A stretch of DNA of 64,000 nucleotides from Chalciporus piperatus (lineage: Eukaryota; Basidiomycota; Agaricomycetes; Boletales; Boletaceae), in NCBI GenBank assembly GCA_038093975.1, contig JBBPTG010000008.1:348890-412889 (forward strand), given 5' to 3'. Both the position numbers and the translations under genes were made by a program. A model generated the notes under the pieces. The model was not told where the DNA came from. It did no database searches and was given only the letters and a program-made list of their open reading frames with translations. Below, in pieces: positions 1 through 50,231 of the stretch; within the stretch, counting starts at the first letter, position 1, and every line of letters starts with the position of its first letter.

Positions 1-1
1 C

Positions 2-409
2 TACAATTTTATTTTTCTTGGCAAGGGATACGAAAATGTGTTGGCAGCTATTGAAGCAATCCAAGACATCTTGCCATTATCGGGAGACTACGCTGTGGGA
101 GACCAATACACTATTGCGGATGTCATCATCACGCCCTTCCTCGGCCGACTGAAGGTGGCTCTCAAGTACGATCTGGGGAAATATCTCGCCGGCCAGGGTA
201 CCGAGATGCTCAAAGTCCTGACTCAGGAAAAATATGCAAAGTTCTACGCTTATTCTAAACGCGCCATGCAACGCGCCAACTTCAGGGAGACCTTCGAAGA
301 GGTAAGGTCATGTGCAGCGTGAGGAAATTTCACGTCCAGTCGAAGTCTAACTCTTGTCATCCAGGAGTACATTAAAGGCGTCTTTGCGGTACATTTTGCT
401 AGGGCATAG
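2..409 (+). CDS. Glutathione S-transferase, C-terminal part (5' end outside window)
   Basis: The reading frame is already open at the left edge and runs to a GTAAGG donor at 302. A 63-nt intron (302-364, ending CCAG) is followed by a 14-codon last exon and TAG at 407-409. The visible protein matches the all-helical C-terminal domain of cytosolic GSTs: a motif of the form GDQYTIADVIITPFLGR is the usual 'pTlADi...P...R' helix-6 signature. GSTs conjugate glutathione to electrophiles in the cytosol. The thioredoxin-like N-terminal domain with the glutathione site lies outside the window, so the class cannot be assigned. An ATG or GTG inside this stretch is not the true start. Confidence 0.75.
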
Positions 410-885
410 AGTGTTGAAGTATCCGAGACAGGTGCAGGGATTACAAAGGTTATGAGAGCTGACCTGTACTATTATGACGAATGCATATTCACCTTTACCT
501 GTGGGGTTTGAGGCTGTTGACAAATGGGTGAATAATAAAAGTGAAACCTGGGGAAAGTCGTTGCCCTGGGTTCTCAGATGGGAACGCTCACCTGAGCGAG
601 AATAATCTCGATCCACTTGAAGGTTGATGTTCACAGCGCCACTCCGCCAACGTCAATGTGATTACAATGGCGAAATCGTAAATAAACTGAAACACACAAG
701 ACGTGAAACTGGTCTTTGCGCCAATGATGTTTTACGTTTTGTTTCCTGGTTGCAAGGGGTTTCTCGATAGATCATGGGGGTGTTGGATACTAGTCAGCGT
801 CAAAGAGCGGTGGTTTAGTGAGGTCCAGCGTCCCTGTACGGGCTGTACCATACCAAAACAGTACTGAGAACCGGCGAGAAGACCG

Positions 886-3129: not shown

Positions 3130-6100
3130 CTAGTGGTTGCTCCTTGCAGCCGCCATGAGCTTAGAGAACATCGAGTTGGGTTGTGAGAGGAGTTCGCGAG
3201 GGGAAGCATATTCAACGGGGACACCCTGTTCCATGACCAAGACCTTGTCACATTCCTCAAGGACCTGGTCGCTCAAGCGGTGCATAACGCTCAGGATGGT
3301 GGCATCAGGGCAGCTGCGGCGCATAGCGTGCTGGATGAAAGCGTCGGAACCGGCATCGATCGATGCGGTGGCTTCGTCCAAGAGCAGGATCTTGGGGTTG
3401 CGGAGGATGGCAGCAGCGAGGCAGAGGAGCTGACGCTGACCAACAGAGTAGTTGGCACCGTTGTCCTGGACCTTGGTGTCGAGCTTGGATGCCTGGGAAG
3501 CGACGAACTGCTTCATGCCGACGAGGTCAAGTGCGTGCCAGAGTTCGTCGTCGCTGTGCTTGCCCGAGAAGTCAAGAGAAGAGCGGATCGTGCCCGAGAA
3601 GACGAAGGGGTCTAATGATGTCAAATCAATGGTTGACGTCAGCGAAGCAATGATTGAGAGCTTACCCTGAGGAATAACCTCCATGCCGCGGCGGAGGGTA
3701 GACACACCAAGGGACTTGATGTCTAGAGAAGGTGGTGAGAGGTATGCGATACACAGAGCGCATTAATCCTTACCTCGGCCATCGATCTCGACGGAACCAT
3801 TGCTAGAGTCGATCATGCGAAGCAACAAAGACAGAAGGGTGGACTTTCCAGAACCGGTGCGTCCAACGATGAAGACAGTCTCGCCAGCGTTGAAAGTGAC
3901 GTTGACGTTGCGGAGAACGAGCTTGTCAGGACGGGAGTGGTAGGCAGCATCGATGTCACGGATAACGATCTCTCCACGGGAAGGCCAAGCAGCCTCAGCA
4001 GGGTCGCTACCGAGACAGGCAGGGTCCTCCTGGGGCACGTTGTTGATGTAGCCCATGATGCGCTCAACAGAGTTCATCTGGACCAGGAATGAGATCCAAC
4101 GCTACAGATCGCTCAAATCAGACGCACCTCAGCCTCAATGTTAGCAGAACTCTTGAGGAGCAAGTTCATAGTGTAGGTAAGCGTCGAGGAGTTGGTCAAT
4201 GCGAGGGCGAATGCAGTGGCGTTGCTGATGAGCTGGGTGTGCGCAAGCATGGCAAGAATGAAAACAACGGTGGAGGACATTATCTCCATGCGGATGGTAA
4301 CCCAGATCTCTGAAGGGACTGTCAGCTATTCTGAACGAAAACAGAAGAAAATAACATACCGGCGTGCATCCTCAAGAAGCTAGGTCTGTTGGCCAAGTCA
4401 AGGAGACCGCCAACGGCATTGGCAAAGTCAGTCTCGCGTTGGTAAGCCATGATCGTCGGGATTCCATCGAGGGTCTCGTTGATACGGGACTGTAGAGGGC
4501 CACGTCCGGTAGACTCGAGACGCTTGAGCTCACGGAGGGACTTGCGGTAGAACCTGAGGACAAACCAGTACACAATCACGATGGGGAACACGAAGGCTAG
4601 GAAAATCAATGTTAAAGAAGTCGGATGTTAGCACCAAAAGGAAACTCACCAAGCATGATTGGGGCGGAGTAGGCCAGGATAACCAACGTAGCGAGGAGGT
4701 TTCCAATACCAGAGACCAACTGGAAGAGCTGAGGCATGAGACGCTGGTCGACGGACTCGATATCCTTTGAGAAACGGTTCATGATGCGACCAATGGGCTG
4801 GCTCTCGAACCACCACATAGGAGCGTGGAGGACACTGTTGAACATCTTGGAGTGGAAGACACGGCTGGCCCGGGTAGTGCTCACGAGGATGGTGGCATTG
4901 AGGATGATGATCAAGAAGATAGTCGCGAAACCGATGCCATCGTAAATCCCAATCCAAGCCGCAGCCTTCTCGTGGAAGTTTTCCTCGGACCACCAAGTGA
5001 GCCACTGGTTGAAGAGGATGGTGGCGCCTTGCTGCAAGAGAAGTTCGATCAAGAGCACAGCGATCATGGGCACACCACCAGTGGCCTTGAGGTACGTCAA
5101 CCACGTAGTGGCATCAACGGCACCCTGGACGCGCTCTTCAACGGCGATGACCTGGTCAGGTTTCTGGGGAGCGGCCTGTTGTTGCTTAGGAGCAGCAACG
5201 CTCTCGCGCTTGTCAGTCTTGTCCGAGTCCTCAGAGGATGAGGCAACCTCGCTAAGCAAACGGGTGAGTTCCCCGTTCCTAGCAACGAGCTTCGCAAAGG
5301 AGCCCTGCTCGACGATACCGCCCTCGGAAACAACGATGATGTTGTCGACTTGGCTGAGGTACTGGAGCTGGTGGGTGACGAGGACACGGGTCTTGCCGTG
5401 CAAAGCCTTCTTGATGCAGTTGTTGAACACCTTGCGGCCGACGCGGGGGTCGAGAGCGGCGAGAATATCATCGAAGAGGTAGATGTCGGCGTCGGAGTAG
5501 ACAGCACGGGAAAGAGCGAGACGGGCCTTCTGACCACCGCTGAGGTTGCTACCCTTCTCGGTCATTTGGGTGGCCATACCGTGAGGGAAAGTCTCGAGGT
5601 CGGAGTCAAAGCAAGTGGTCTCGATGGCCATCTGGAGCTGCTTCATGTCGAATGGACGACCGAAAAGGATGTTGTCCTGGATGGTGGAGGTTTGGACCCA
5701 GGGTTGCTGGGCGCAGTATGCGATGGAACCGTTGATGTGAACCTCACCAGAGACGCGCATCATCTCTCCGATGATTGCCGAGAGGAGGGAACTCTTGCCA
5801 GATCCAACGTGGCCGACGATGGCAGTCAGCGAGCCGGTGCGGATGTTCATGTTGATGTCATCGAGGAATGGACGGGGGACATTGAACTTCTCGATGCTAG
5901 AAACCTCAGCCTTGTCAGTGGCGGGAGCAGCAGCCTCAGGCTTGAGAGCAGTCCACGAGAAACCACCGTCGGTAATGCTGATAGCGTGGCGGCTGAGGGT
6001 CATGACATCAGGGTGAGAAATCTGAACACTGCCGGAGGAAGACGAAGGCTTCTCATCAGCGAGGAGGAAAGCGTAAACACGGCCCCAGGAGGTGGTTGCG

Positions 6101-9100
6101 ATGACGAGAGCACTGACAGAAACGCGTCAGTACGAACACGCTTGGGGTAATCAACGACATACCTGAGGAGCTGGGGGAGCGAAATGAGGGGGTCCACCAA
6201 CATGCCAAAGAACGAGAGAGCAGGGAAGACCCTGGAAGCAGGGATCATGCCCATGTTCTCATGGCCAAAGAGGGAGAAAGCAGCAAGAGGCATGAGAGTG
6301 TTGGTGACCTGTCCGACGATGACGAAGCTTGCGACACCAACGTTGAAGCGACGCAACCAATGGAGCTGTTCATCACGGATGCCTTGGACCTTGTTCAAGA
6401 AGTGGTCCTCGCGGCCATTGATTTTGACGAGGCGGATTCCTACGAGTAGACGATCAGTCAATTGTCCAGCAGGATTCGAGGTAGTCATACCGTCGAAGAT
6501 CTCGCGGATGGTCTTGAGACGACGGTCACCAAGACGCATGAACCATGGAGCAGCCTTCTTCATGAAAACAGGGACAACCATAATGAGGAGGAACAGGGCG
6601 AAGAGCAAAATACCGATGCTGGCCAACATAGAAGTTCCAAGGAGGCGAGAGAGGAAGACCGTGACAACGATGAGTTGCAGGGGAATGCTCCAGATCTGGT
6701 GGGTCGACTCGAATGCCTTGGAGATGGACTCGCAGTCGACGTTGACGAGGTTCATGATGTATCCCTTACCGAACTCCTGGCTGCTCTCCGGGGATAGACG
6801 AAGGGCCTTCTTGTAAACGGCGGAAACGAGGGTAGTCTTAACATCCAAAGCCATGCGCTTCACTAGCTGGTCTGCAGAGCGTCCGCAGAGGGTGAACGCG
6901 AGCTTGAAAGCCATCAAGATGCCGCCCAATGCATAGGTGTTGTCGACGAAAAGGGGGAATCCACCGGTGTTTGCTTCAATAGCCGTGTTGAACTCAGCGA
7001 GGGCGGTAGCGTTTCCAACAGGGGCGGGAGGAGCGCTGCGGGCGACGATGATTTGCTGCAACAGCAAAGGGGACATTATTCCAGAGCAGATGGAAAGGAA
7101 CCAGAGGAAGCCGGAAAGGAACCTGTCATTTGGGCAACATTCAATTGTCCGTGGCATATACAACAATAAGAGTGCTCTTACCACAAGTTAACGGCAGCGG
7201 CGAAGATCGTCTTGAACAAGGCAGGCTGCTTGCGGTCCTGGTCGAGGAACCACACTCGCAACTGAGTCCAGAAAGGGTCCACCCAGCGTTCCACCATGGA
7301 AGCCTCGTCGGCCCGGCGAAGAGGGAGAAGATCCTGTGAAGATAAAAACACAAGTTATACATTTTCACCGCGTACGAAACGAAATATAAATACCGATTCC
7401 ACCAATGGACGCTTGGCTCCGAGCGTCAACAATGGGGTGATCCAGGACAAGGTCAAGAACGAGAGAATCGAGATTTCCTGAGCCCGGTGAGTAATACTGT
7501 TAACAGCCTCGGGGAGGGTTTCAACGGGGGGTTGCACGAGGATCATCTTGCTGACGGGACGGTACTTGGAGACAGGGACGTCGAGGGCGACATCGTCAAC
7601 TTCAACTGACTTAACTGGGTAGTCAACATCTTTCTCGCCGATGAACATTTCGGGAACATCGTCCTCAACGATGGTAGCCTGGCTGGCAGGGCTGTCAAGG
7701 ACGTCGAGGTCATCACCCAAAATCTCAAGGGCAAGAACCTCTGCAGTGACATCCTCCTCGAAGAGGTGGGTCATCTCCTCATCGTACTCGAACTCGGATT
7801 GCAACCAGAAGTAGAGGCGGATCATGGTGACGGAGTTGAGGCCGGAGTAGATGAGGGGCAGGGTGAGAGGGATGGCGTTCTCAGATTCAGCAAGTAGCTT
7901 GATCTCGGATGCGATTGTCTCAGCGAGAAGCTCTACCTTGGACTCGGCGGAGTAGGTGGAGGTTGCGTCAGATCCCGCGTTACGGCCAAGGATAGCAATG
8001 GTGCCGTCAGCTTGCAAGCAACCAATGTCGTCTGTGTAGAGGAGCATCTCCTGACCACCCCAGGGCAGGAACATGCGCTGGGTGGCCTCTTCGTTGTCAA
8101 GGTAGTGAGTTGCGCTCTGGCTCGTAACAATGCCAACGATTCCTGTTGCCCCTTCCTCGTTCTGGGGAATGACGGAAAGATCGTCGTCGATGAGGACAAG
8201 GTCACTGCATCCGTGCGTGGGCCCGAAGGAAATGACGGAGGGGATAGCATCAGAAGGGCGAATGAACACCTGGGAAACTCCAGCAAAACCAACTTCGGAG
8301 CACTGCAAAGATCGTTAGACCTGTGTGAGTGAGTACAACCCAGAGATAACTTACAGCGTAGTTGCAAGCAATGGTGGCGTTGGGGAAGATAGCACGAGCA
8401 ACCTCGAGGTCGTAAACGTCCAAGGTTTCACCGCCAATAACGACCCAGTAAACACGCTTGAAGCCACGGGGAAGTTGAGAGCCGTCAGCGCGAATTTGAA
8501 CCAAGTCGACGAATGCGCGGAAGAAGCTGGGAGTGACGTGCACACGGAGCAACTGAGAGTTACGGGTGGATTCGAGCTCATCGCAAAGGGCGGCGCATTG
8601 TTCCGCGACGGTGGAAGATCCATCGAGGTACAAGGTGGTCTGGTTGAACATGAAGCGACGGATCTCGAAGAAAGGGCGCAGGAAGGTCTGGTTTCACCAG
8701 ATGCGTCAACATCAGGTCTCTTGCGAAGGAACGAAAGGCTTACCGATCCACCACGGAGCCATTGGCCATCCATGGGCTTGAGGAGAGTGGACGACTCCTC
8801 AGCGAGAACCGCCAAACTCCTGCTCATAGGGTACACGATGGACTTCGGAACGCCAGTGGTACCGCTGGTGGGAGTAATTGAGCAAATTCGGGGAATTGCT
8901 TCGACGATCTCTGAGGCCGAGGGAGGAGCAACGTAGCTGGGAGCCTTGGGGGGGACGAAGCTCAAGGTGGAGACAGTCGTAACTCCAGCAACAGCCGAAG
9001 GCTCAATAGAACCGAACAGGACAAGGCGGGCATCTGCGCGCTCGAGGACAACCTGAAGGACTTCAGGGGTCCAGTGGGTGGAAAGGAAAACAACGGTGCG

Positions 9101-9387
9101 ACCAGAAAGCCAGATAGCGTGGGCTGCGGCAACATAGTCGATTTCAAGGCTAAAAATGCAAGATCAGACACCATCTAGTAGAAACGACAATAATCTTACC
9201 CCATGTAAAGGCCAACAGGATTCCTAGTTTCGTCAAGGTCATGAATTTTCTCAGCAATCTGCCTAACACGAGCCCAGAGGGCGGCGTAAGACCATTGATT
9301 GTCCGCACAGCGAACAGCAATCCGGAAGGGGTTCTGCTTGGCGACTTGGAGGAGAGCCTCGGTGGGGGTAATTAACGAGCCAGACAT
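3130..9387 (-). CDS. Adenylation domain - carrier domain - ABCC transporter fusion protein
   Basis: About 13 exons and roughly 1,850-1,900 residues. Start Met is 9385-9387 (MSGSLITPTEAL); stop is 3130-3132. Residues 1-~425 are an AMP-binding fold: core motif SGTTGVPKS (A3), NYACSE at the A5 position, TDDIG at the A7 position (normally TGD), and LGR at A8. Residues ~430-505 resemble a phosphopantetheine carrier domain, with candidate Ser466 in GLNSV. An acidic linker follows. From residue 585 comes ABCC sequence (LSWITPLLTLGAKRPL), then TMD1, NBD1 (GHVGSGKSS, LSGGQ, LFDDILAALD), TMD2 and NBD2 (GRTGSGKST, YSVGQRQ, LLLDEATASID). Exon 4 (7394-8302) encodes the end of the adenylation domain, the carrier, the linker and the ABCC start in one open frame. 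Exons 1-4 join in phase 0. The ANL C-terminal lid with the A10 lysine seems absent. Possible role (inference): activating an acid and handing it to, or gating, the transporter. Substrate unknown. Confidence 0.85.
7394..8302 (-). other. Exon 4 of the fusion gene, carrying the carrier-to-transporter junction
   Basis: A single 909-nt exon in phase 0 at both ends. It runs from the A5-like motif (CSEVGF) through the truncated end of the adenylation domain, the carrier-like domain (Ser codon 7832-7834, in YSGLNSVTMIRL) and a roughly 80-residue acidic linker to the first ABCC segment (SFLTLSWITPLL). No stop or plausible intergenic signal lies between the two halves. The fusion is therefore in the genomic reading frame itself and not a product of intron guessing. 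Confidence 0.85.
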
Positions 9388-18128: not shown

Positions 18129-20713
18129 TTACATCTGCTTAGCTGATTTCTCCTCGTACATCTTCGTCAACTCACCGACCGCTTTCAGAGCGCGAGGCGT
18201 GTCGTACTTGCCCATAATGACCTCCACGAGCTGGATCTTGCCCGCCTGAGAAAACTGGGGATCATCCAGTAATTTGTCTAGCCCAGACTTGTCCCGCACG
18301 GAGTATGACCTCGACAATTTCCCATCAGGGTCTCCCAGGGTCGTCAGCAGTGAAGTCCATTTCCTGATTACATCCCGTCAAGTTCCCGAACTAGAGTGAC
18401 GAAGAGACATATATCCAACTCACCAATCGACGATGTCGTTATATTTCCTGCTCTACACGTAAGAGTATGGTGCTGGGGAGCAGAGGTGTCACTCACCTCT
18501 CCATACCGTGAAGGTTCCTCTCGATGTTGTAACCCTGATTGTTGAGCAGGAAAATGATCGGAGTGACTCCGTGGTGTATCATAGTAGACAGTTCCTGGAC
18601 GCCGAGTTGCCTAGAACAACGTTCAGAACTGGTTGGATATGCGAGGGCAGAACCTACATGCTTCCGTCGCCAACGAAGAGGATAACTCGACCGAGTCCCT
18701 TTTCACGGGCGGCGAGGGCTGCTCCCAGAGTGCTCCCTGGAACAGTATTGTGTGCATTTCTCCCGTGAAAACATGCTTCGATGCTCACCGACTGTCCAGC
18801 CAATACTTCCATAAAGTATCTGACTCATGAAGATAGATTGTTCGGGTAGGGGAACGTCCAAAATCCCGAAGTTGGACGTTCCTGTCAAATATTCAGTTCG
18901 GTATCAAACGAAAGTATATCTTCTCGATTACCTGTTTCAGCGATAATGACGTCTTTTCGTTTAAAGAATTTTCCGACGCTGGGCCAGAAGTATGCCTGCG
19001 TGATAGCATCTTCTCGTTCCTGCGGAATTTCGAGCTTGGGCCTAGGAACGAATAGTTCAATAGCGTGATGTTTGTATTTGCTAAGCCGGGTAGTGAGCTT
19101 TGGAAGAAGAAGCTTCATCCCGATCCCTGGAAAATGCGCATGATGTACAAGAGTGTGATCGGAATGCAGCTGGGAGGGATTAAACACCTGAATGCTACGA
19201 GGTCGACCATGAACATTACCTCGATGGCATGACTGGCAGGAATTCTGTATGTGAACATCCCGGTATTGAAGTCTGATTTCAGAGCGCCGATGGACAATAT
19301 CAACTTCGCCCCCTCGACCTTGTCCTTAATTATCGGATCGCTGATAGACCCTATGTAGATCTCCGAGGACATGAAAAGGATGAAGAAAGGGTAACAATTG
19401 ATATACTCACTCCGCCATACCGGTCGTACTCTTCGCTGACTGCCGTCTTGCCCATGGGTGCAGAGTACACCGGGAAATGGGTTGCAGTAACCAAATCTTT
19501 CACCTCATCTTGCACGTCATGACGAGAGACACAAGCATCGACGAGTATGACGATGTCCTTCTCCGCAGCGTCGATAGCCTTCATGATCTCGTCCAATACA
19601 AAAGCTTCGATATCGGGGTTGTTCGGAGGAGGAACCCGCGAGATAGGAACCTTCAGTCGTTTCGCAGGGATTTTTTCGGATACCATATCCACTGGAAGTC
19701 TGAGGTAGACTGGGCGCGTCTGGAGAGGAGTAAGACTATCATAGCAACCAAGTCGGTCGTGTCGCGTACGAATACAATCAATCAGAACGCGATCAATCTC
19801 TGAAGCAGCATTTGTTCTGTCCATCAGTATTGCCTGAGATATGGCAACTTGCTCTGCAGCCTTCGTGTATACATCAAACCTATCCGTCGACGTCAGTGAC
19901 ATGGTGCACTCGCATAGGATCGTCATATACCTTCCATCACCGAGAGTGTGGTGAAGCAATGGCCTCGTCTTGAGTTGAGTGGTGCTTGGAACCCCGACAA
20001 TATGGAGCACCGGAACCATCTCGGAGAATGCTAGATCGCACGCAAGCACATGTGAGGTCGGCGTCGAGAGAAAGATGGTGCTACCTCACCTCCTGCAATG
20101 CCATTGATAGCGCTCAACTCACCCACTCCGAACCTTACAGAGAGGGGTTCGAGTTAGAGTTGTTGGGAAAGACGACGAATCGAACTACTTACGTGGTGAC
20201 AACGACCCCAATGCTATGATCCTTAACCCTCGCATAGCCGTCGGCGCCGTATGCTGCGTTGAGCTCGTTGCTACGAGACGTTAGTCTCGCAAAGTCTGGA
20301 GAAAAACCAGGATACACACCAATTCCCGACCCATTGAATCCTGGGATGATCCTCTACGTAATCCTGCGCGTTGAATCTGTGAGTGAAGCAGCAACGCCGT
20401 GATGCTTTAAGCGCACCAGGAATGCTGTGGGTGATGTGAGTGTTAGCTATAAAATCGGTTCGGCGTATCACACATACGCATGTTGAAGTCACCGGGAACA
20501 CCGAAGATTGACTGAGCAAGGTGGGGGGAGCGGGTGTCAGCTCTCAATTAGATGGTCAAAAATGGGATGTACCGAAACACCAAGCTGGTCCAACCTAGTC
20601 AAGAGATAGTCGGAGATGGTGGTCTGTTCCTCATCAGTAATTCTGCTCTCAACGGAGAGCTCATCTATCTGGTGGCGAAGTCTCGCAATCTCTGCCTGAA
20701 GATCAGCTTCCAT
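18129..20713 (-). CDS. PDC: Pyruvate decarboxylase, copy A
   Basis: Start is 20711-20713 (MEADLQAEIARL), stop 18129-18131, multi-exon. It is a thiamine-diphosphate enzyme converting pyruvate to acetaldehyde and CO2 in the cytosol. Seen: FGVPGDFNM; catalytic Glu in NCNELNAAYGADGYARVK; the PDC His pair in LLHHTLGDG; and the ThDP/Mg motif GDGSM...LLNNQGYNIE. An 8-nt microexon (20417-20424) is needed to read FNMPFLDYVEDHP. The first about 35 residues, before TTISDYLL, form a heptad-like coiled coil that usual PDCs lack. Oddity: near 19770 copy A lacks five nucleotides present in copy B just before a donor. Splicing there would shift the frame; retaining the 50-nt intron keeps the frame and adds 17 codons. 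Function of this copy is therefore uncertain. Confidence 0.85.
20417..20424 (-). other. 8-nt microexon of PDC copy A
   Basis: On the minus strand this reads CATTCCTG, preceded by CCACAG and followed by GTGCGC. Joined to the exon ending 'AAC ATG C' and the next exon starting GATTAC, it gives N-M-P-F-L-D-Y. This is the sequence expected in PDC between FGVPGDFN and VEDHP. Without it the frame does not join. Confidence 0.7.
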
Positions 20714-25021: not shown

Positions 25022-27607
25022 TTACATCTGCTTGGATGATTTCTCCTCGTGCATCTTCGTCAACTCACCAGCCGCTTTGAGAGCGCGAGGCGTGTCGTAC
25101 TTGCCCATAATGACCTCCACGAGCTGGATCTTGCCCGCCTGAGAAAATTGGGGATCATCCAGTAATTTGTCTAGCCCAAACTTGTCCCGCACGGAGTACG
25201 ACCTCGACAATTTCCCATCAAGGTCTCCCAGGGTCGTCAGCAGTGAAGTCCATTTCCTGAGTACATCCCGTCAAGTTGAGTTACGAAGAGATATATATCC
25301 AACTCACCAATTGACGATGTCGTTATATTTCCTGCTCTACGCGTAAGAGTATGGTGCTGGGGAGCAGAGGTGTCACTCACCTCTCCATACCGTGAAGGTT
25401 CCTCTCGATGTTGTAACCCTGATTGTTGAGCAGGAAAATGATCGGAGTGACTCCGTGGTGTATCATAGTAGACAGTTCCTGGACGCCGAGTTGCCTATAA
25501 CGACGTTCAGAACTGGTTGGGTAGGCAACGGCAGAGAACCTACATGCTTCCGTCGCCAACGAAGAGGATAACTCGACCGAGTCCCTTTTCACGGGCGGCG
25601 AGGGCTGCTCCCAGAGTGCTCCCTGGAACAGGATCGTGTGCATTTCTCCCGTGAAAACATGTTCCAATGCTCACCGACTGTCCAGCCAATACTTCCATAA
25701 AGTATCTGACTCATGAAGATAGATTGTTCGGGTAGGGGAACGTCCAAAATCCCGAAGTTGGACGTTCCTGTCAGATTTTCAGTGCAATTTCCTATAAGCG
25801 TGTATTTACCAACCCACCTGTTTCAGCGATAATGACATCTTTGCGTTTAAAGAATTGTCCGACGCGGGGCCAGAAGTATGCCTGCGTGATAGCATCCACT
25901 CGTTCCTGCGGAATTTCGAGCTTGGGCCTCGGAACGGGCAGTATAATGGCGTCGTTTTTGTATTTGCTAAGCCGCGCAGTGAGCTTTGGAAGAAGAAGCT
26001 TCATCCCGATCCCTGGAAAGTGCGCGTGGCGTACAAGAGTGTGATCCGAATGAAGCTGGAAGGGATTAAGAATAGGTTGGTGTAAGGTCAAGTCCATGAA
26101 CATTACCTCGACGGTGTGACTAGCAGGAATCCTATACGTGAACATCCCGGTATTGAAGTCTGATTTCAGAGCACCGATGGACAATATCAACTTCGCCCCC
26201 TCGACCTTGTCCTTAATTATCGGATCGCTGATAGACCCTATGTAGATCTCCGAGGACATGAAAAGGGATGAAGCAAGTGTAACAAGTGATATACTCACTC
26301 CGCCATACCGGTCGTACTCTTCGCTGACTGCCGTCTTGCCCATGGGTGCAGAGTACACCGGGAACTGGGTTGCAGTGACCAAATCTTTCACCTCGTCTCG
26401 CACGTCATGACGAGTGACGCAAGCATCGACGAGTATGACGATGTCCTTCTCCGCAGCGTCGATAGCCTTCATGATCTCATCCAATACAAAGTTTTCGACA
26501 TCCGGATTGTTCGGAGGAGGGACGCGCGATAGGGGAATCTTCAATCGCCTGGCTGGTACTTTTTCGGATACCATATCTGTTGGAATCGTGAGGTACACAG
26601 GGCGCGCCTGGCGACAAGTGAGTCCATCATGCAAGCGAGTCCATCATGGTCGCGTACGTGGGTAATGCAATCGGTGAGGACGCGATCAATCTCAAAGACA
26701 GCGTTTGCTTTGTTCATCAGCACTGCCTGAGATATGGTTACTTGCTCTGCGGCCTTCGTGTATGCATCAAACCTATCCGTCGACGTCAGTGACATGGTGC
26801 ACTCGCATAGGATCGTCATATACCTTCCATCACCGAGAGTGTGGTGAAGCAATGGCCTCGTCTTGAGTTGAGTGGTGCTTGGAACCCCGACAATATGGAG
26901 CACCGGAACCATCTCGGAGAATGCTAGATCGCACGCAAGCACATGTGAGGTCGGCGTCGAGAGAAAGATGGTGCTACCTCACCTCCTGCAATGCCATTGA
27001 TAGCGCTCAACTCACCCACTCCGAACCTTACAGAGAGGGGTTCGAGTTAGAGTTGCTAGGAAAGATGACGAATCGAACTACTTACGTGGTGACAACGACC
27101 CCAATGCTATGATCCTTAACCCTCGCATAGCCGTCGGCGCCGTATGCTGCGTTGAGCTCGTTGCTACGAGACGTTAGTCTCGCAAAGTCTGGAGAAAAAC
27201 CAGGATACACACCAATTCCCGACCCATTGAATCCTGGGATGATCCTCTACGTAATCCTGCGCGTTGAATCTGTCAATGAGGCAGCGAGGCGAAAACGCTT
27301 GAAAATCGCACCAAGAATGCTGCAGGTGACGTGAGTATTAGCTATGAATGCGTTCAGCGTACAACACATACGCATGTTGAAGTCACCGGGAACACCGAAG
27401 ACAGACTGAGTAGAGTGGGGGAACTGTCAGCTTCCTCCTTACATGGTCAAGAATGGGATGTACCGAAACACCGAGCTGGTCCAACCTAGCCAAGAGATAG
27501 TCGGAGATGGTAGTTTGTTCCTCCTCATCAGATATTTTACTCTCGACGGAGAGCTCATCTATCTGGTGGCGAAGTCTGGCCAACTCGGCCTTAAGATCGG
27601 CTTCCAT
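25022..27607 (-). CDS. PDC: Pyruvate decarboxylase, copy B
   Basis: Start 27605-27607 (MEADLKAELARL), stop 25022-25024. The exon pattern matches copy A and the same motifs are present: FGVPGDFNM, NCNELNAAYGADGYARVK, LLHHTLGDG and GDGSM...LLNNQGYNIE. The 8-nt microexon is at 27312-27319 (CATTCTTG on the minus strand). Unlike copy A, the junction before RPVYLTIPTDMV splices cleanly in phase 0: ITH, a 50-nt GTACGC...CGCCAG intron, then ARPVYL. This copy looks fully functional. It makes acetaldehyde from pyruvate in the cytosol. The N-terminal coiled-coil extension of about 35 residues is kept. The two proteins differ at scattered sites, mostly outside the catalytic motifs. Confidence 0.88.
27312..27319 (-). 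other. 8-nt microexon of PDC copy B
   Basis: On the minus strand this reads CATTCTTG between an acceptor CTGCAG and a donor GTGCGA. It supplies the codons for P-F-L between FGVPGDFNM and DYVEDHP, exactly as in copy A. It is conserved although the flanking intron sequence differs between copies. Confidence 0.7.
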
Positions 27608-40059: not shown

Positions 40060-40239
40060 TCTTTTTTGACGAACAAGTCTTTTCGATTTTATCTTAAAAC
40101 TTCCTTTTCGAATCCCTTACCTTTCGACTCCCTTCGCGGAACTTAGGGTTGGCCCACCCGAACGTATACCGAAGATCGTCGAACCTTCGAAGATTCGAAA
40201 CCAACAACCAAACCTACCTGATCAAAAAATATCGACAAT
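40060..40239 (+). other. Untranslated leader of the Ty3 element
   Basis: Sequence between the 5' LTR and the Gag start codon. The bases right after the LTR (TCTTTTTTGACG) do not begin with TGG, so a standard tRNA primer-binding site is not evident. Self-priming, as in Tf1-like elements, is possible but I could not pair it convincingly. Confidence 0.45.
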
Positions 40240-43200
40240 ATGTCACGCTACGTACTGCGCAGTCGTACTACTAGACTCGCTGAACTCCCTCAGACCCCGC
40301 GTCGTCGGGCGCTCAGCGATTCGTCGCCCTTGTCTCCTCCACCAGCGCCGGGACCGCAAGGTTCCCGACCTGGTTCTCCGTTGTTCGGCGCATCGCGATC
40401 TTATCGCGATGTCGTTGCGACGAGACCGTCTTCCCCTACGGAAGGACGTGCATGGGCCAGTAGAGCCGGATCGGTCGTTCCTGAAACACCGATCCAAATC
40501 AATAAAATAACGTTACCTGGTGAATTCGCACCTGAGAATAGATCCAACTCGCCTGACGAGGCTGAGAGAGTTGGACAACTGAAAACGGTACACCGTGGAC
40601 CAGCGCGTGTGTCCGAACCTGAGACCCAATCGGAATCCGCTCGAGACGAGCAGGAACATGAGAGTGAGATTGAGAGAACTCTTCAAGAGGCCGAGAAAAG
40701 CCTTACCGATGACCAGCGCGCGACGATTAAGCGTCGTAACCGTCGGGTCTCTATGCACTTGCCTAGACCTGAGCAGGAAGATAACGAGCCCGGCCCTTCG
40801 AAGGGAAAGGGTGTCGATCCCCGTAACTGGGGGGTACTTGAACTAAACGACAACGAGATGGACTTGGACGCGCAGCGTCGCGCGTTGTCAGTCTGGAATA
40901 CGATGAGAGACATCGTTAAAGAACGAAACTTACCTGTTGATACCGTCGTCGCGTCGAGTGACGACGACAGCTACCAGCCTAGCGACGCTGGTAGCTCTAC
41001 GAGAAAAGCAGCTAAAAAAGCGAGGCGTCAGCGGCGTCGTCGCAGAGAAGCTAAGAATCGCGAGGAACACTCGGTTAGTACCCACCGCACGAACTTTGCG
41101 ATGGAGCGTGAGCAAGGAAACGATCCGGTCGAGCAATTGATTGAGCGTACCTTGAAGTCCAAGGGACGGAAGTCTAAAAAGACTAAGGACCGTGCGATGG
41201 AACCGGTGGAGCAGATCGCGCCGACCAGCTACCTCGGAAAAGCATTGAAGCAAGTGAGTAGAAAGAAAAAACGAGCACGAGGGTCTCCCTCAGACTCTAG
41301 CTCGTCATCCTCTGAGGACAGCAGGAGTCACTCAAGCGATTCGAGCTCGGACTCGACAGAGACCGGCTCGTCGTCATCATCGGGAGACTCGTCGTCGAGC
41401 AGTAGCAGTTCATCCCGTAAAGGAAGGGGACGCGGCAGGAATCGCGGGAGCGCTAGACGAATTAAGCGTAAAGATCGAAAAAAGAAACGATCCCATCGAC
41501 ATGGGTATGGCAAGTTGAAACCCGTCCCTCCTACCAAGTACGACAGGTCGGCTGATTCACGCGCGTTCCACCGGTTCGTGACCGAAGGTCGAGCGTACGT
41601 CGAGGCCGGAGAGGTAAAGAGCTACGAGCAGGTGTTCGTGCTCTCGCGTTTCCTGGGTGGAAAGGCACATGAGTTCTACATCAGAGAGGTGTCGGACGAA
41701 CCCTACAAATGGAGACTTAAGGAGTTCTTCATGGAGATGTTCAATGCCTGCTTCCCGATTAACTATCGGACGAAGCAGCGTGATAAATTGCGGCGCACCT
41801 TCCAACACGAGCGTCCTGTTCGCGATTACATTGCTGAGCTTAATGAGTTATGGAATCTCATTGGAGATGTCAGTGAACGAGAGAAAGTAATGAAGCTGTG
41901 GTTCGGTCTGAACCCAGCGCTACAGTCCGAGCTGTGGAGGGATAAGCTGAATCCTGAGAAATCGACGCTGCGGCAAGTCGTGGCGGCGGCTGAGATCATT
42001 GAAATAGCTCAATCCGTGACGAGTGGGCGCGGAACGCGCGATAAAATAGGCGAATGGGATCGGTCGAGTCGTAAAGCTCGATCCCGGCGAGATCGATCAC
42101 CAAGACCCAATGCTCGAGACGATGGAGCAAAGGCCTCTGGGACAGTTTGGGGGCCTGAACAGAGGGCCAGAGGCGATGCCTCGGCGACTCATAAAGGAGT
42201 AGGAACGCCCAGTACTGGGGCAGGGCGCTTTAGCGATCGCGGAGGTCGCGGACCAAGAGGACGAGGAGGCGGTCCCACCTCCGATCGGAGGGCAAGACCC
42301 GGTCGTTCGATTAGCGAACACTTTAATCTGACAGAAGATGAGTATAAACGACGGGCAGAGAAGGGGCTCTGCTACAAGTGTGCAGGGAATGGACATACCA
42401 GCAATCAGTGCCCTGAAGGCAGGGTGGTGACGGGGGGTAATCGCTCTTCGCCGCCAGGGGTTAGCAGCTTCAGTGTCGATTTAGCGAGTGTCTCGCAGGC
42501 GGAACGATTAGTTGACTCTGTCGAACGCGTCGATGAGATTAGCTTGGGGGCGATGCACCTCGAAACGGAAGGGGAGGACCCTGACTCACCCAGAAACGAG
42601 GTAACACTTCGAATGGGTGATCCTCTGGCCAGGAGGGCTGAAGAGGTACTGCGGTTGGGGGCGCCCTATCCGGGGGATGATCCTTCGGATCAGCGAGTAT
42701 ATCGTCAAAGTCGCTGGCTGTCGTACCGGGTGTCTGACACTCAACATGTCATCTACGATGTCAGAAGGGGGAGAGACGGGGGAAGAGACGGCCCCCAGGA
42801 AGACTGGGACTTCTTGATTGACACAGACCTGCTCACTAATACTGAATTCTGCATTGGCGATTGGTATGCGAGAGCGCTAGTGGCGAAAGGCTATGGCGTC
42901 GAGGCTGGCGGGGGCACAATCAGCGCGCGAGGAACACGAATGGCGGACCCGTTAGCGAGACGGATTGAACATCTGCTTACCGAAGAATACGACGCCGGCT
43001 GGCAGTCAGGTCGTTTTGAGTGCCAAACCGTTGAAGATGGTCGGATAATGCTGTGGGACAGACGGCTGAACTATCAAGTTGAGGTTCCCTTGCATTTGGC
43101 GCTTCGCGAACGGTTCAATGTGGCGGACTGGTACCGTGTTCGTGCTCGACGCTCCACTACCGAGTTGTTCGATATGGTCAATCCAGACCTACCAGACCGC

Positions 43201-45590
43201 GAACGTTGGAGCTTACCTTTGTGGTTGTGGGGAACAGCCAGTCTCGAGGAGGAAAATGAAGACATATTGGCGAGCTTCATGGCTGAAGTAGCTGACGACT
43301 TGGAATGGTCGAGCGGCGTTGAATGCCGAACCAACAACGATGGCCTCATGGTCATAACCGAAGTAAACGGAGTGCAAATCCCTGAAGGGAGGTTCCCGGC
43401 GCTCGAGCGAAACGCGTCGGCCACCAAGGACTTCAAACGCTTGATTCCCAAACCGGTGGTTATCGTTGTCCATATCGAGGGACATCCCGCAAGAGCGCTG
43501 GTGGACTCGGGATCCCTTGCTGATTTCATGTCAACAAACCTGGCTGAGCAGCTCAGCGTTAAGCGGATTGCCCTAGCGAAGCCACTTACGGTTCAATTAG
43601 CGGTACAGGGATCACGGTCCAAGGTGAACTATGGGACGAAGGTTCGCTTCGAGTATCAAGGGATTAGCGCCGACCGCTACTTTGATATCATGAACTTACA
43701 AAACTATGATTTGATCCTAGGGACGCCGTTCCTGTTTCAGCACAAGGTGATGGTTGGCCTCAACGAGTCGAGGGTGGTGATCGGATCGGACGAACCACTT
43801 CCCATCAGAGGCGCTCAGGTACAGGTCCTGGAATCACGCGCTGCTGAGGTGTTGGACGAGCGGATCGATCAGGCTAGGAGACTGCTGTATGAAATGGCTA
43901 AGCCGTTGTGCGGTAAAGCGAGCGATACGGACTTACCGCCGTTGCGAGCGATAAACCACACGATACCGCTGATTGACACGAGCAAGATTTACCCTTGGAG
44001 GGCGTCGCGCTGCCCTGAGCCGTTGAGGCCCCAGTGGGTTGAGAAGCGGCGGTCGTATCTTAACACTGGTCGTTGGAAGATGACCAGCATTGGGAATACC
44101 GTTCCTATGCTATTCATAAAGAAGCCTGGAAGCGATAAGCTTCGCACTGTAGTGGATCTGAGAGAGAGAAACAAAAATACGCACAAATTGTCAGCGCCGT
44201 TGCCTGATATCGACGGGATCTTGAGGCGGGTGTGCCAGGGGCGATATCGATCGATTATTGATGGCCAAGATGCTTACGAGCAGATCAGGATAATTCCTGA
44301 GCACGTTGAGTTGAGTGCGGTAACCACGCCGGACGGAAACATGGTCAGTACGGTTATTCAAATCGGTGACTGTAACGCGCCTGCGACTTACCAGGCTCTG
44401 ATGAACCACCTGTTCGGAAACTATATAGGACGGTTCATGGACGTGTATCTCGATGATATTACCGTCTATTCGAAGACGCTAGAGGAGCACGTTGAACACG
44501 TTAGGATCGTTCTTGATATTCTCCAGCGGGAGAGACTGTACCTTAGTGAATCCAAACTGCGTTTCCTGTGTAAGGAGATGAAGGTATTGGGCCGTGTCGT
44601 TGACGACGATGGTATTCGGATGGACCCTGACAAAGTCAATAAGGTGGTGAACTGGAAGACACCCACTAATCGAGACTTACTGCGGGGGTTCATTGGCGCA
44701 GCGGGATACCTCGCTGATGATATCTATAAGGTTCGCGTGCCGATGGGAATCCTATCCGCGGTGACAGGCGACGCCGTCCCGTTCAAATGGAGCGAAACCG
44801 AGCAGCGGTCATTTGAGACTGTTAAGCGCTACGTCCAGGCGTGCGCTGACCACCGACGTGTACCACTCAGCTATGGGGAAAGTAGCGAGCCTATTTGGTT
44901 AATGACTGACGCATGTCTGAATGGGATCGCCGCAGTGATCGCTCAGGGGGGCGATTGGCGAACGGCGCGTATCGCGGCGTTCTTTAGCGCAAAGATGAAC
45001 TCGGCGCAGCAGAACTACCCTGTACACGAACAGGAGATGTTAGCGGGAGTAGAGGGGATGCTACGTTACCGGGATATCCTGCAAGGGGCGCGCTTCACTT
45101 GGTTAACCGACCACAAGGGATTGATTCATCTATATAACCAGAAGAACCTGTCTGGTCGGCAAGCGAGGTGGATTGAGAAGATTAGCGAGTTCGACTTCGC
45201 GATCAAGTACTTGCCTGGTGTTGAGAACGTCTTGCCCGACGCGTTGTCACGAATTTACTCGGCGGATGCGCCCGGGACGGTTCGCTCGCCTACTGAATAT
45301 GTCGAGCTTGCTGAAGATGGTATTGATGTGGCATTGGCCGAGGTCGTGAGCATGCCAGTCCTCGTAGGGCAGGAGGCTTTGGGGGCTGCTCGCCGGAGTG
45401 AACGGTTGAGGGGCAAGGTACCTGTGCATCAGGTTCCTGCAGTGGGTCCTTCGAGGACACCAGAGGCAGGGGGGGGCGGGGGCACCGCTGTTGTTGGCCC
45501 TGCAAGGACTATGGCAAAAGGGAAGGCAGTTGGGCCGCCTCGCAAGGGCCCTGGGCCGCAGCGATCAGCCGCGCCTGCTAAGGAGCCGGC
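40240..45590 (+). CDS. Ty3 Gag-Pol, 5' part: Gag, protease, reverse transcriptase, RNase H
   Basis: ATG at 40240. The frame is open for about 1,784 codons up to the nested insertion; the open frame continues 18 codons into the inserted LTR and stops at 45643-45645. Residues 1-430 are a Ser/Arg- and Lys/Arg-rich N-terminal region. The Gag capsid-type domain is at about 435-600. The zinc knuckle CYKCAGNGHTSNQC starts at residue 711. The aspartic protease ALVDSG is around residue 1089. The reverse transcriptase has YLDD at about 1403-1406 and the RNase H has MTDAC near residue 1557. There are no internal stops. An extra region of about 350 residues between zinc knuckle and protease contains two related segments (MADPLARRIEHLL / MGDPLARRAEEVL). 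I do not recognise its function. Confidence 0.92.
45586..45590. repeat. Target-site duplication, left copy
   Basis: CCGGC immediately before the nested 5' LTR; matches 50227-50231. Confidence 0.9.
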
Positions 45591-46179
45591 TGAAACGACT
45601 CAACTCAATCAAGAGCTAGCGCTATCATCAGACAACATGCCCTAGCGAAACCACATCAACTCAGTAACTAGAGCTGAGGATCAGACTAGGCAAGCAGGAG
45701 CGCTTGGCCCATGAAGTTCAAGAAGAGGAAACTCCAGGAGAACAAGACTGGAGAGCCAGTGCTTGTCAACCCGGGTTTATATACTATTGTCAGTGTTTGT
45801 ACATGTTGTGGCTAAACCTTAACTATATGACTAGGTATGACTAGATATGAGTCATGGCGAGTAACAGCCAATAGCGTATATGACTAGGAAGCGAGATGAG
45901 TCAGCGTGAGTCAGTATGAGTCACGGTGAGTCATAATGAGTCAATAAGAGTCTGAGTCATGGTGACTCGGTATGAGTCATGGACAGTGGGGAAGATGCAC
46001 AGCCACGCACAGCCACGTTATGTAAGCGAAAGGCTAGACCTAGCTGATGTCAGCAGGTTGATGTGATCTTGATAAGATAAGATAACAGGAAAGGGAGAGA
46101 AAGCGACTAAGTCCAAAAGTGAAAGAGAAACGTAGTAAGTGTAGGAAAGACTAGGATAAGGAACTGAGCGTTCGTAACA
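45591..46179 (+). repeat. Nested element, left LTR
   Basis: 589 bp. By eye it differs from the right LTR at only two positions (a G/C change near 45693 and a T/A change near 45788). This suggests a recent insertion. It carries the TGAGTCA cluster listed separately and a TATATACTATTG stretch near 45778. Confidence 0.92.
45848..45979 (+). promoter_or_regulatory. Cluster of eight TGAGTCA (Gcn4/AP-1-type bZIP) sites in left LTR
   Basis: TGAGTCA starts at 45848, 45898, 45907, 45917, 45927, 45937, 45953 and 45973. The five from 45898 to 45937 are 9-10 bp apart, one helical turn, so all would lie on one face of the DNA. TGAGTCA is the consensus site of Gcn4/CPC1 and other bZIP activators. Several TGACTAG near-sites precede it. 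Confidence 0.75.
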
Positions 46180-49637: not shown

Positions 49638-50226
49638 TGAAACGACTCAACTCAATCAAGAGCTAGCGCTATCATCAGACAACATGCCCTAGCGAAACCA
49701 CATCAACTCAGTAACTAGAGCTGAGGATCAGACTAGGCAACCAGGAGCGCTTGGCCCATGAAGTTCAAGAAGAGGAAACTCCAGGAGAACAAGACTGGAG
49801 AGCCAGTGCTTGTCAACCCGGGTTTATATACTATTGACAGTGTTTGTACATGTTGTGGCTAAACCTTAACTATATGACTAGGTATGACTAGATATGAGTC
49901 ATGGCGAGTAACAGCCAATAGCGTATATGACTAGGAAGCGAGATGAGTCAGCGTGAGTCAGTATGAGTCACGGTGAGTCATAATGAGTCAATAAGAGTCT
50001 GAGTCATGGTGACTCGGTATGAGTCATGGACAGTGGGGAAGATGCACAGCCACGCACAGCCACGTTATGTAAGCGAAAGGCTAGACCTAGCTGATGTCAG
50101 CAGGTTGATGTGATCTTGATAAGATAAGATAACAGGAAAGGGAGAGAAAGCGACTAAGTCCAAAAGTGAAAGAGAAACGTAGTAAGTGTAGGAAAGACTA
50201 GGATAAGGAACTGAGCGTTCGTAACA
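49638..50226 (+). repeat. Nested element, right LTR
   Basis: 589 bp, near-identical partner of 45591-46179. The same TGAGTCA cluster recurs at 49895-50026. It is followed directly by the CCGGC target duplication and the rest of Ty3 pol. Confidence 0.92.
49895..50026 (+). promoter_or_regulatory. Cluster of eight TGAGTCA sites in right LTR
   Basis: Exact counterpart of 45848-45979, shifted by 4047 bp. It could drive transcription toward the integrase-encoding half of the outer element. Confidence 0.7.
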
Positions 50227-50231
50227 CCGGC
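50227..50231. repeat. Target-site duplication, right copy
   Basis: CCGGC immediately after the nested right LTR; matches 45586-45590. Confidence 0.9.

What the first reader, a model, noticed from the sequence alone, without database searches (positions are those of the whole stretch)
3130..9387. Adenylation domain and carrier domain fused in frame to a complete ABCC transporter
Seen: AMP-binding motifs (SGTTGVPKS), a carrier-like GLNSV serine and an entire two-NBD ABCC transporter follow in one frame; the critical junction is inside a single exon. Known: adenylation/carrier modules activate and hold acids in NRPS-like enzymes, and ABCC proteins export conjugates. I know of no described protein joining the two. 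Inference: a substrate may be activated, tethered and handed to the exporter by one polypeptide, or the adenylation part may sense a ligand and gate transport.
Basis: partly seen in the sequence, partly recalled or inferred. Interest (0 to 1): 0.88.

Follow-up and report, generated by a model that had tools for sequence, protein, structure and literature searches.

The report
Enzyme-carrier-exporter fusion protein in mushrooms
A mushroom gene really does join an acid-activating enzyme domain and a carrier domain to a membrane exporter, a fusion already in print by 2015; here the enzyme part has lost its catalytic tail while a separate second gene keeps a complete enzyme, which makes export coupled to activation testable.

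Summary
On the minus strand, 9387-3130 spells a 13-exon, 1873-aa protein without internal stop: adenylation (A) core, carrier, acidic linker, full ABCC transporter; the join lies inside exon 4. Six fungal proteins (four Boletales-type, two chytrid) share the order, and two are uninterrupted ~2000-codon ORFs that look like cDNA. The fusion is not new: Kovalchuk et al. 2015 (PMC4692070) describe this "unusual ABC-C transporter" in Boletales and already propose biosynthesis-transport coupling. Apparently new here: (1) the middle domain has a predicted carrier fold with Ser466 at the start of helix 2; (2) this copy lacks ~114 residues holding motifs A8-A10, so it should not adenylate unaided; (3) the same genome has a separate, complete A-carrier gene that ends in an ABC-start vestige where the fused gene's intron 4 would begin; (4) intron 4 has the gene's only donor without G at +5, and in relatives its read-through gives a short conserved tail, so one gene may make both a soluble A-carrier enzyme and the transporter. 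Best model: the carrier, charged in trans here, presents an acid to the exporter. Mechanism and substrate are inference.

The parts
3130..9387 (-). whole coding region, ATG 9387 to TAG 3132-3130, 13 exons, 12 introns, 1873 aa
   Evidence: splice model without internal stop, all introns GT-AG
7982..9387 (-). adenylation-domain core, aa 1-416 (motifs A3 TSGTTGVPKS 8869-8840; A5 NYACSE 8363-8294, split by intron 3; A7 YTDDI 8038-8024)
   Evidence: PF00501 93.7 bits; motif alignment; coordinates
7958..7984 (-). junction left by the loss of about 114 residues (A8-A10, Asub) present in relatives and in the C94 paralogue
7694..7924 (-). carrier domain, aa 436-512, Ser466 at 7834-7832
7478..7693 (-). 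acidic, low-confidence linker, aa 513-584
   Evidence: pLDDT under 50 over most of it (homologous part); fastest-changing segment compared
7394..8302 (-). exon 4, aa 310-612: end of A core, carrier, linker and first residues of the ABCC part in one open exon
7334..7393 (-). intron 4, 60 nt, donor GTATTT (only donor of the gene without G at +5); read-through adds 12 residues then stops
   Evidence: tails in relatives
3133..7477 (-). complete ABCC transporter, aa 585-1873; Walker A at aa 1066 and 1665, signatures LSGGQ 1156 and YSVGQ 1768, Walker B IYLFDD 1176 and ILLLDE 1788
   Evidence: Pfam; the 60 solved relatives shown are ABCC members including SUR and CFTR; motif positions
4167..5052 (-). 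second transmembrane domain (Pfam span aa 1320-1580)
3364..3915 (-). second nucleotide-binding domain (Pfam span aa 1648-1796)

Best explanation
The gene encodes a member of a fungal family in which an adenylation domain and a phosphopantetheine-type carrier are tethered by a flexible linker to the N-terminus of an ABCC exporter (order shown from sequence; carrier fold predicted). In intact relatives the A domain would activate a carboxylic acid that is not an alpha-amino acid, load it on the carrier in cis, and the carrier's arm would present it to the transporter (inferred). In this genome the fused copy has lost A8-A10 and so should depend on the separate complete A-carrier protein (C94) or another adenylating enzyme to charge its carrier in trans (loss shown, trans charging inferred). 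The ancestral gene probably makes two products through intron 4, whose donor is weak: spliced gives A-carrier-ABCC, retained gives soluble A-carrier with a short tail (tails and donor shown, regulation inferred). After duplication the short form became the C94 gene and the long form the window gene (inferred from the ABC vestige at the end of C94).
For: Same order in six fungal proteins. P0001 is a 2004-codon ORF on a 6368-base contig, leaving about 350 bases where the window gene alone has 636 nt of introns, so it looks like spliced cDNA of the long form; P0150 looks like cDNA of the short form (733 aa on a 2422-base contig, open where introns 1-3 would lie, intron 4 read through). Carrier Ser in 175 of 176 carrier matches; carrier fold predicted in this copy. 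A4 Asp replaced by Leu in all six family rows. C94 gene: 740 aa, three introns at the same places, complete A8-A10, ends ...SSLFPSWVVPMLGESRSLMES + VVVLVAG-stop. Of 236 fetched proteins plus C94, 19 match the read-through pattern; 19 of 19 have V or L at codon 2 (T at donor +5), 18 of 19 stop after 7 residues; in the window gene 11 of 12 donors have G at +5. Window A core is not faster than its own transporter: end branches 0.170 and 0.194. Two PF01648 (phosphopantetheinyl transferase family) matches in the genome.
Against: No biochemistry; substrate unknown. The window carrier is under the PF00550 cut-off and P0150 shows no PP-binding match at E up to 5; one fused relative (P0004, Chiua) has Pro for the Ser. 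On the whole N-module the window's end branch (0.31) is twice that of C94 (0.15) and its place is unresolved. dN/dS of about 0.09-0.16 for A core and carrier rests on near-saturated dS. In another group (P0051, P0053, P0055, P0056) the A core is absent and Asub-carrier-ABCC remains, so cis adenylation is not required family-wide. No RNA data were available for this genome; contigs of relatives may be chained in assembly; many tails come from close relatives and are not independent. The missing segment could be an assembly error.
Confidence: 0.4

Rival explanations
1. One gene, two separate jobs: the intron-4 switch yields a soluble A-carrier enzyme or an ABCC transporter, and the N-terminal module on the transporter is only a passenger or a targeting/stability element.
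For: Weak donor and recurring tail; many Boletales ABC gene models start inside the ABC part (for example P0032-P0041); free A-carrier genes are common in the listing; a Met 31-33 residues before the SWxTPLL motif in P0001-P0004 and in the window.
Against: Carrier Ser and fold are kept on fused forms even where A8-A10 or the A core has been lost; the fusion is found from chytrids to Boletales.
Confidence: 0.22
2. The N-terminal module is a ligand sensor that gates the transporter, as nucleotide binding does in SUR-type ABCC proteins (analogy recalled).
For: The A core that should bind ATP and ligand is kept and constrained in a copy that should not catalyse.
Against: Does not explain the near-invariant carrier Ser or the proteins that kept Asub and carrier without the A core.
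Confidence: 0.18
3. In this species the fused A part is decaying after the C94 copy took over, and only the ABC transporter still matters.
For: A8-A10 lost; N-module end branch 0.31 against 0.15 for C94; a relic of another ABC copy lies on C58.
Against: Frame fully open through 1873 codons; core motifs intact; A-core branch no longer than the ABC branch; in the tree the intact fused P0002 is as far from the Boletales base as the window (0.17+0.099+0.039).
Confidence: 0.15
4. Two neighbouring genes wrongly joined, or an assembly artefact.
For: Several public Boletales models are split at this place.
Against: Open exon 4 spans the join; uninterrupted ORFs in P0001 and P0002; published by others in several species.
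Confidence: 0.03

Closest known systems
ABC-C transporter with AMP-binding N-terminal domain of Boletales (Kovalchuk et al. 2015, PMC4692070; their ref. 15 of 2013 not read)
   Same: N-terminal AMP-binding domain on an ABC-C transporter; relatives in Boletus, Pisolithus and Coniophora (names); coupling of biosynthesis and transport proposed there
   Different: The terms carrier, phosphopantetheine, PP-binding and splic have no occurrence in that main text; here A8-A10 are lost, a carrier is identified, a split-off paralogue and a possible intron-4 switch are seen. NRPS clusters are reported beside it in C. puteana and S. lacrymans; here no AMP-binding or PP-binding match is listed on contig C8, but the capped listings miss even this gene's own domains, so that is weak
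Standalone A-carrier proteins of Agaricomycetes (e.g. P0158 Gelatoporia CERSUDRAFT_115161; P0147 Tylopilus)
   Same: Homologous A domain (52-74% identity to P0002's module among P0146-P0168, split models P0150 and P0152 included) and carriers with GLNS
   Different: Two or three carriers in many and no transporter; some end in an ABC-start vestige
NRPS adenylation-carrier didomains (LgrA, NpsA-ThdA, carboxylic acid reductase)
   Same: A and carrier folds by VIA-align
   Different: No condensation, thioesterase or reductase domain seen; fused to an exporter
Bacterial LplT-Aas fusions (passages of PMC11416262; P0232 has PF00501, PF01553 and PF07690 together)
   Same: A transporter fused to a protein with an adenylate-forming domain; the paper calls the fused ORFs uncharacterised
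   Different: MFS flippase and lipid acylation, not an ABCC exporter with a carrier domain
ABCC transporters ABCC2/MRP2, ABCC3, MRP1, MRP4, YCF1
   Same: Homologous full transporter (E to 2e-203)
   Different: None is recalled to carry an A-carrier module; here it sits where TMD0 sits in long ABCC proteins (recalled)

Membership tests
ABCC transporter | two TMD-NBD units with ABCC as nearest solved relatives | tested here: met
ABCC transporter | both NBDs keep Walker A and signature; NBD1 Walker B ends DD (no Glu), NBD2 DE | tested here: met
   motif positions; the asymmetry as typical of ABCC is recalled
Boletales ABC-C with AMP-binding domain (Kovalchuk 2015) | AMP-binding domain N-terminal to ABC-C in one gene | tested here: met
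Boletales ABC-C with AMP-binding domain (Kovalchuk 2015) | same isolated ABC-C phylogenetic group | tested here: inconclusive
   nearest named hits are Boletales; their sequences were not placed in one tree with ours
Adenylation (ANL) domain | core motifs A3, A5, A7 | tested here: met
Adenylation (ANL) domain | C-terminal subdomain with A8 and the A10 lysine | tested here: not met
   absent in the window copy, present in C94, P0001, P0002, P0004, P0005, P0006; so filed as A core, not as a working A domain
4'-phosphopantetheine carrier | four-helix fold with Ser at the start of helix 2 | tested here: met
   predicted only:
4'-phosphopantetheine carrier | PF00550 over the curated cut-off | tested here: not met
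   14.6 against 20.8 bits; C94 17.5 bits; homologous carriers of P0158 52.7 bits; C94 22.1 bits in the genome search. A score cut-off rather than a defining trait, but only fold and Ser then support membership
4'-phosphopantetheine carrier | phosphopantetheine on the Ser | not testable with these tools
   needs mass spectrometry
NRPS-like synthetase or carboxylic acid reductase | condensation, thioesterase or reductase domain | tested here: not met
   none among the Pfam matches shown: the single family of the 586-aa N-part, and the best 25 of 39 for the whole protein

The most novel reading that the evidence does not exclude
One ancestral gene uses a deliberately weak splice donor to make either a soluble acid-loading enzyme or the same enzyme on an exporter; duplication then split the two isoforms into two genes in this fungus, leaving a transporter with its own covalent carrier that is charged in trans and exports its cargo from the carrier: a carrier-tethered ABC exporter.
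Probability: 0.22. Interest if true: 0.82.

Novelty: new variant of a known kind. Interest (0 to 1): 0.52.

Why it matters
If a carrier domain hands a thioester-bound acid to an ABCC exporter, that would be a direct, covalent form of substrate channelling into an ABC transporter, and the unknown metabolite proposed by Kovalchuk et al. becomes approachable through the standalone A-carrier protein. The C94/C8 pair, with an enzyme gene that stops where the other gene's intron starts, offers a natural test of how a fused gene splits by way of its splice isoforms.

Tried and rejected

Led nowhere or weak: hmmscan of the N-module gives no PP-binding. The A-domain tree left window and C94 unresolved. 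A4 and code positions are read from recalled GrsA numbering; no substrate prediction is offered beyond 'not an alpha-amino acid'. AF2 of P0150: mean pLDDT 62.9, 26 sequences; of exon 4: mean 64.0, good only over the carrier and part of the A core. The search for NRPS-type neighbours on C8 is uninformative. Species not identified. Paper searches for the fusion by domain words found nothing relevant; the 2015 paper surfaced. on fission through splice isoforms gave one unrelated-looking paper, not read.

Full report
Observation. A splice model with 12 short GT-AG introns gives a 5622-nt CDS, 1873 aa and no internal stop. Pfam finds AMP-binding at aa 15-361 and two copies each of ABC_membrane and ABC_tran. 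Exon 4 (8302-7394) carries, without a stop, the end of the A core, a carrier-like segment, an acidic linker and the first residues of the ABCC part.

Not an artefact. A search with aa 1-640 (7988 candidates scored, those sharing most words) listed 30 proteins: six carry ABC domains (P0001-P0006; five of the six have PF00501 called, P0004 not) and 24 are NRPS-type proteins at 20-29% identity. Named ones are Astraeus odoratus, Chiua virens and, twice, the chytrid Irineochytrium annulatum (taxonomy). Alignment shows continuous homology from A core to NBD2; P0004 lacks most of the A core in its model, P0003 part of Asub in its model, and P0006 the first part of the A domain. P0001 is 2004 codons on a 6368-base contig; the window gene's introns alone sum to 636 nt (lengths), so P0001 looks like spliced cDNA; P0002 is an uninterrupted 2021-codon ORF. 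A search with the ABC half listed 120 of 5345 hits; five of the 120 show PF00501 in the Pfam column (one column, P0060, is cut). Many Boletales models there begin inside the ABC part. Three A-carrier models lie on contigs of the same length and species as truncated ABC models: P0145 with P0044, P0152 with P0039/P0040, P0170 with P0054. They look like split models of one gene.

The missing piece. Relatives have A8 (GRSSRNVKxNG) and A10 (MPFNASYK, MPYNASFK). In the window copy the frame passes from TIAILGR directly towards the carrier; about 114 residues are gone. The A10 lysine is needed for adenylation in this superfamily (recalled), so this copy should not adenylate alone. In P0051, P0053, P0055 and P0056 the reverse is seen: they start at Asub and keep carrier and ABCC. 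The A4 Asp that binds the alpha-amine in NRPS A domains (recalled numbering) is Leu in all six family rows.

A second gene. The own-genome searches list one further A-carrier copy, C94:31748-29349, minus strand, 740 aa, with introns 1-3 at the same places and complete A8-A10. It ends SSLFPSWVVPMLGESRSLMES + VVVLVAG and a stop. The first part is a worn version of the ABCC start (SFLFxSWMTPLLxLGxKRPLLES), and the stop comes where the fused gene's intron 4 would begin. No further ABC sequence was found in the 9.9 kb fetched around it (tblastn, E up to 0.01). Standalone proteins of Tylopilus (P0147) and unnamed sources (P0146, P0196, P0198, P0199, P0201) end similarly. The simplest reading is fission of a fused gene at intron 4. 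The tree leaves window and C94 unresolved at the base of the Agaricomycete rows (24 rows, 10 of 21 inner branches starred).

Intron 4. In the window gene 11 of 12 donors have G at +5; intron 4 (GTATTT) has T. Its read-through adds VFIFRFVRGENV and stops. Of 236 fetched proteins plus C94, 19 match a pattern for reading from the KRPLLES end into intron 4; all 19 have V or L at the second codon, hence T at +5, and 18 stop after seven residues, eight of the 18 with VVIFVSG (the window and C94 fall outside the pattern). Long forms P0001-P0004 read KRPLLES-DLLPLRR there, so this is the same intron. P0150 (733 aa on a 2422-base contig) is open where introns 1-3 would lie but keeps intron 4, as an unspliced-isoform cDNA would. 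Many of the 19 are close relatives, so they are not 19 independent cases.

Constraint. Window against C94: dN/dS about 0.14 and 0.09 for the two halves of the A core, 0.15 for the carrier, 0.43 for the linker, with near-saturated dS. On five fused proteins and a fixed tree the window's end branch is 0.170 for the A core and 0.194 for the ABC part, so the A core is not running free. On the whole module its end branch is twice that of C94 (0.31 and 0.15), though the intact fused P0002 lies as far from the same node.

Prior knowledge. Kovalchuk et al. 2015 (PMC4692070; section 'Order Boletales' read in full; other passages) describe this architecture, its presence in all analysed Boletales except Suillus luteus, its earlier finding in Serpula, Coniophora and Ceriporiopsis, the coupling hypothesis, and NRPS neighbours in two species. 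Their main text has no occurrence of 'carrier', 'phosphopantetheine', 'PP-binding' or 'splic'; supplements were not seen. In the own genome no AMP-binding or PP-binding match is listed on C8, but these capped, exon-by-exon listings miss even this gene's own domains, so a nearby NRPS cluster is neither shown nor excluded. Bacterial LplT-Aas fusions are a distant precedent for transporter plus adenylate-forming enzyme (passages; P0232). Peroxisomal ABC transporters with acyl-CoA thioesterase activity, seen only as search listings and abstract starts, show that an ABC protein can act on a thioester substrate.

Verdict. The fusion is real and already described. What this window adds is a variant whose A domain has lost its catalytic subdomain while the carrier is kept, a split-off complete partner gene, and evidence for a splice switch that joins or separates enzyme and exporter. 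How it works is inference: most likely the carrier presents an acid, charged in trans here, to the transporter.

Noticed in passing
window 1-420 (+): End of a gene with a glutathione S-transferase C-terminal domain (GST_C_2, E 7.8e-08), convergent with the fused gene; ABCC exporters often move glutathione conjugates (recalled), but this may be chance.
   Followed up: partly
G000:C58:37603-37863 (locus L037): Relic of another ABC half (TMD1 piece, about 60% identical to the window, with a stop), so the family has had at least one more copy here.
   Followed up: partly
P0051, P0053, P0055, P0056: Proteins of about 1600 aa that start at the Asub of the A domain and continue into carrier and ABCC: the A core is absent, the carrier kept.
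   Followed up: partly
P0154-P0168, P0188 and others: Standalone relatives with up to three tandem carriers after one A domain (Gelatoporia, Thelephora).
   Followed up: partly
window 19354-20085 and 26544-26978 (-): Two ORFs that open with the same 60 residues; TPP-enzyme middle domains were found in 19354-20085 and in the adjoining 25795-26643, so probably a duplicated TPP-enzyme gene.
   Followed up: no
window 40222-45642 and 50215-52824 (+): An 1807-codon open frame, not scanned, and an 870-codon frame with integrase zinc-binding and Tf2-1 SH3 domains, that is retroelement sequence.
   Followed up: no
P0004 and P0151 (Chiua virens): Fused protein whose carrier serine is Pro and whose A core is truncated in the model; the same species has a standalone A protein with two carriers.
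   Followed up: no
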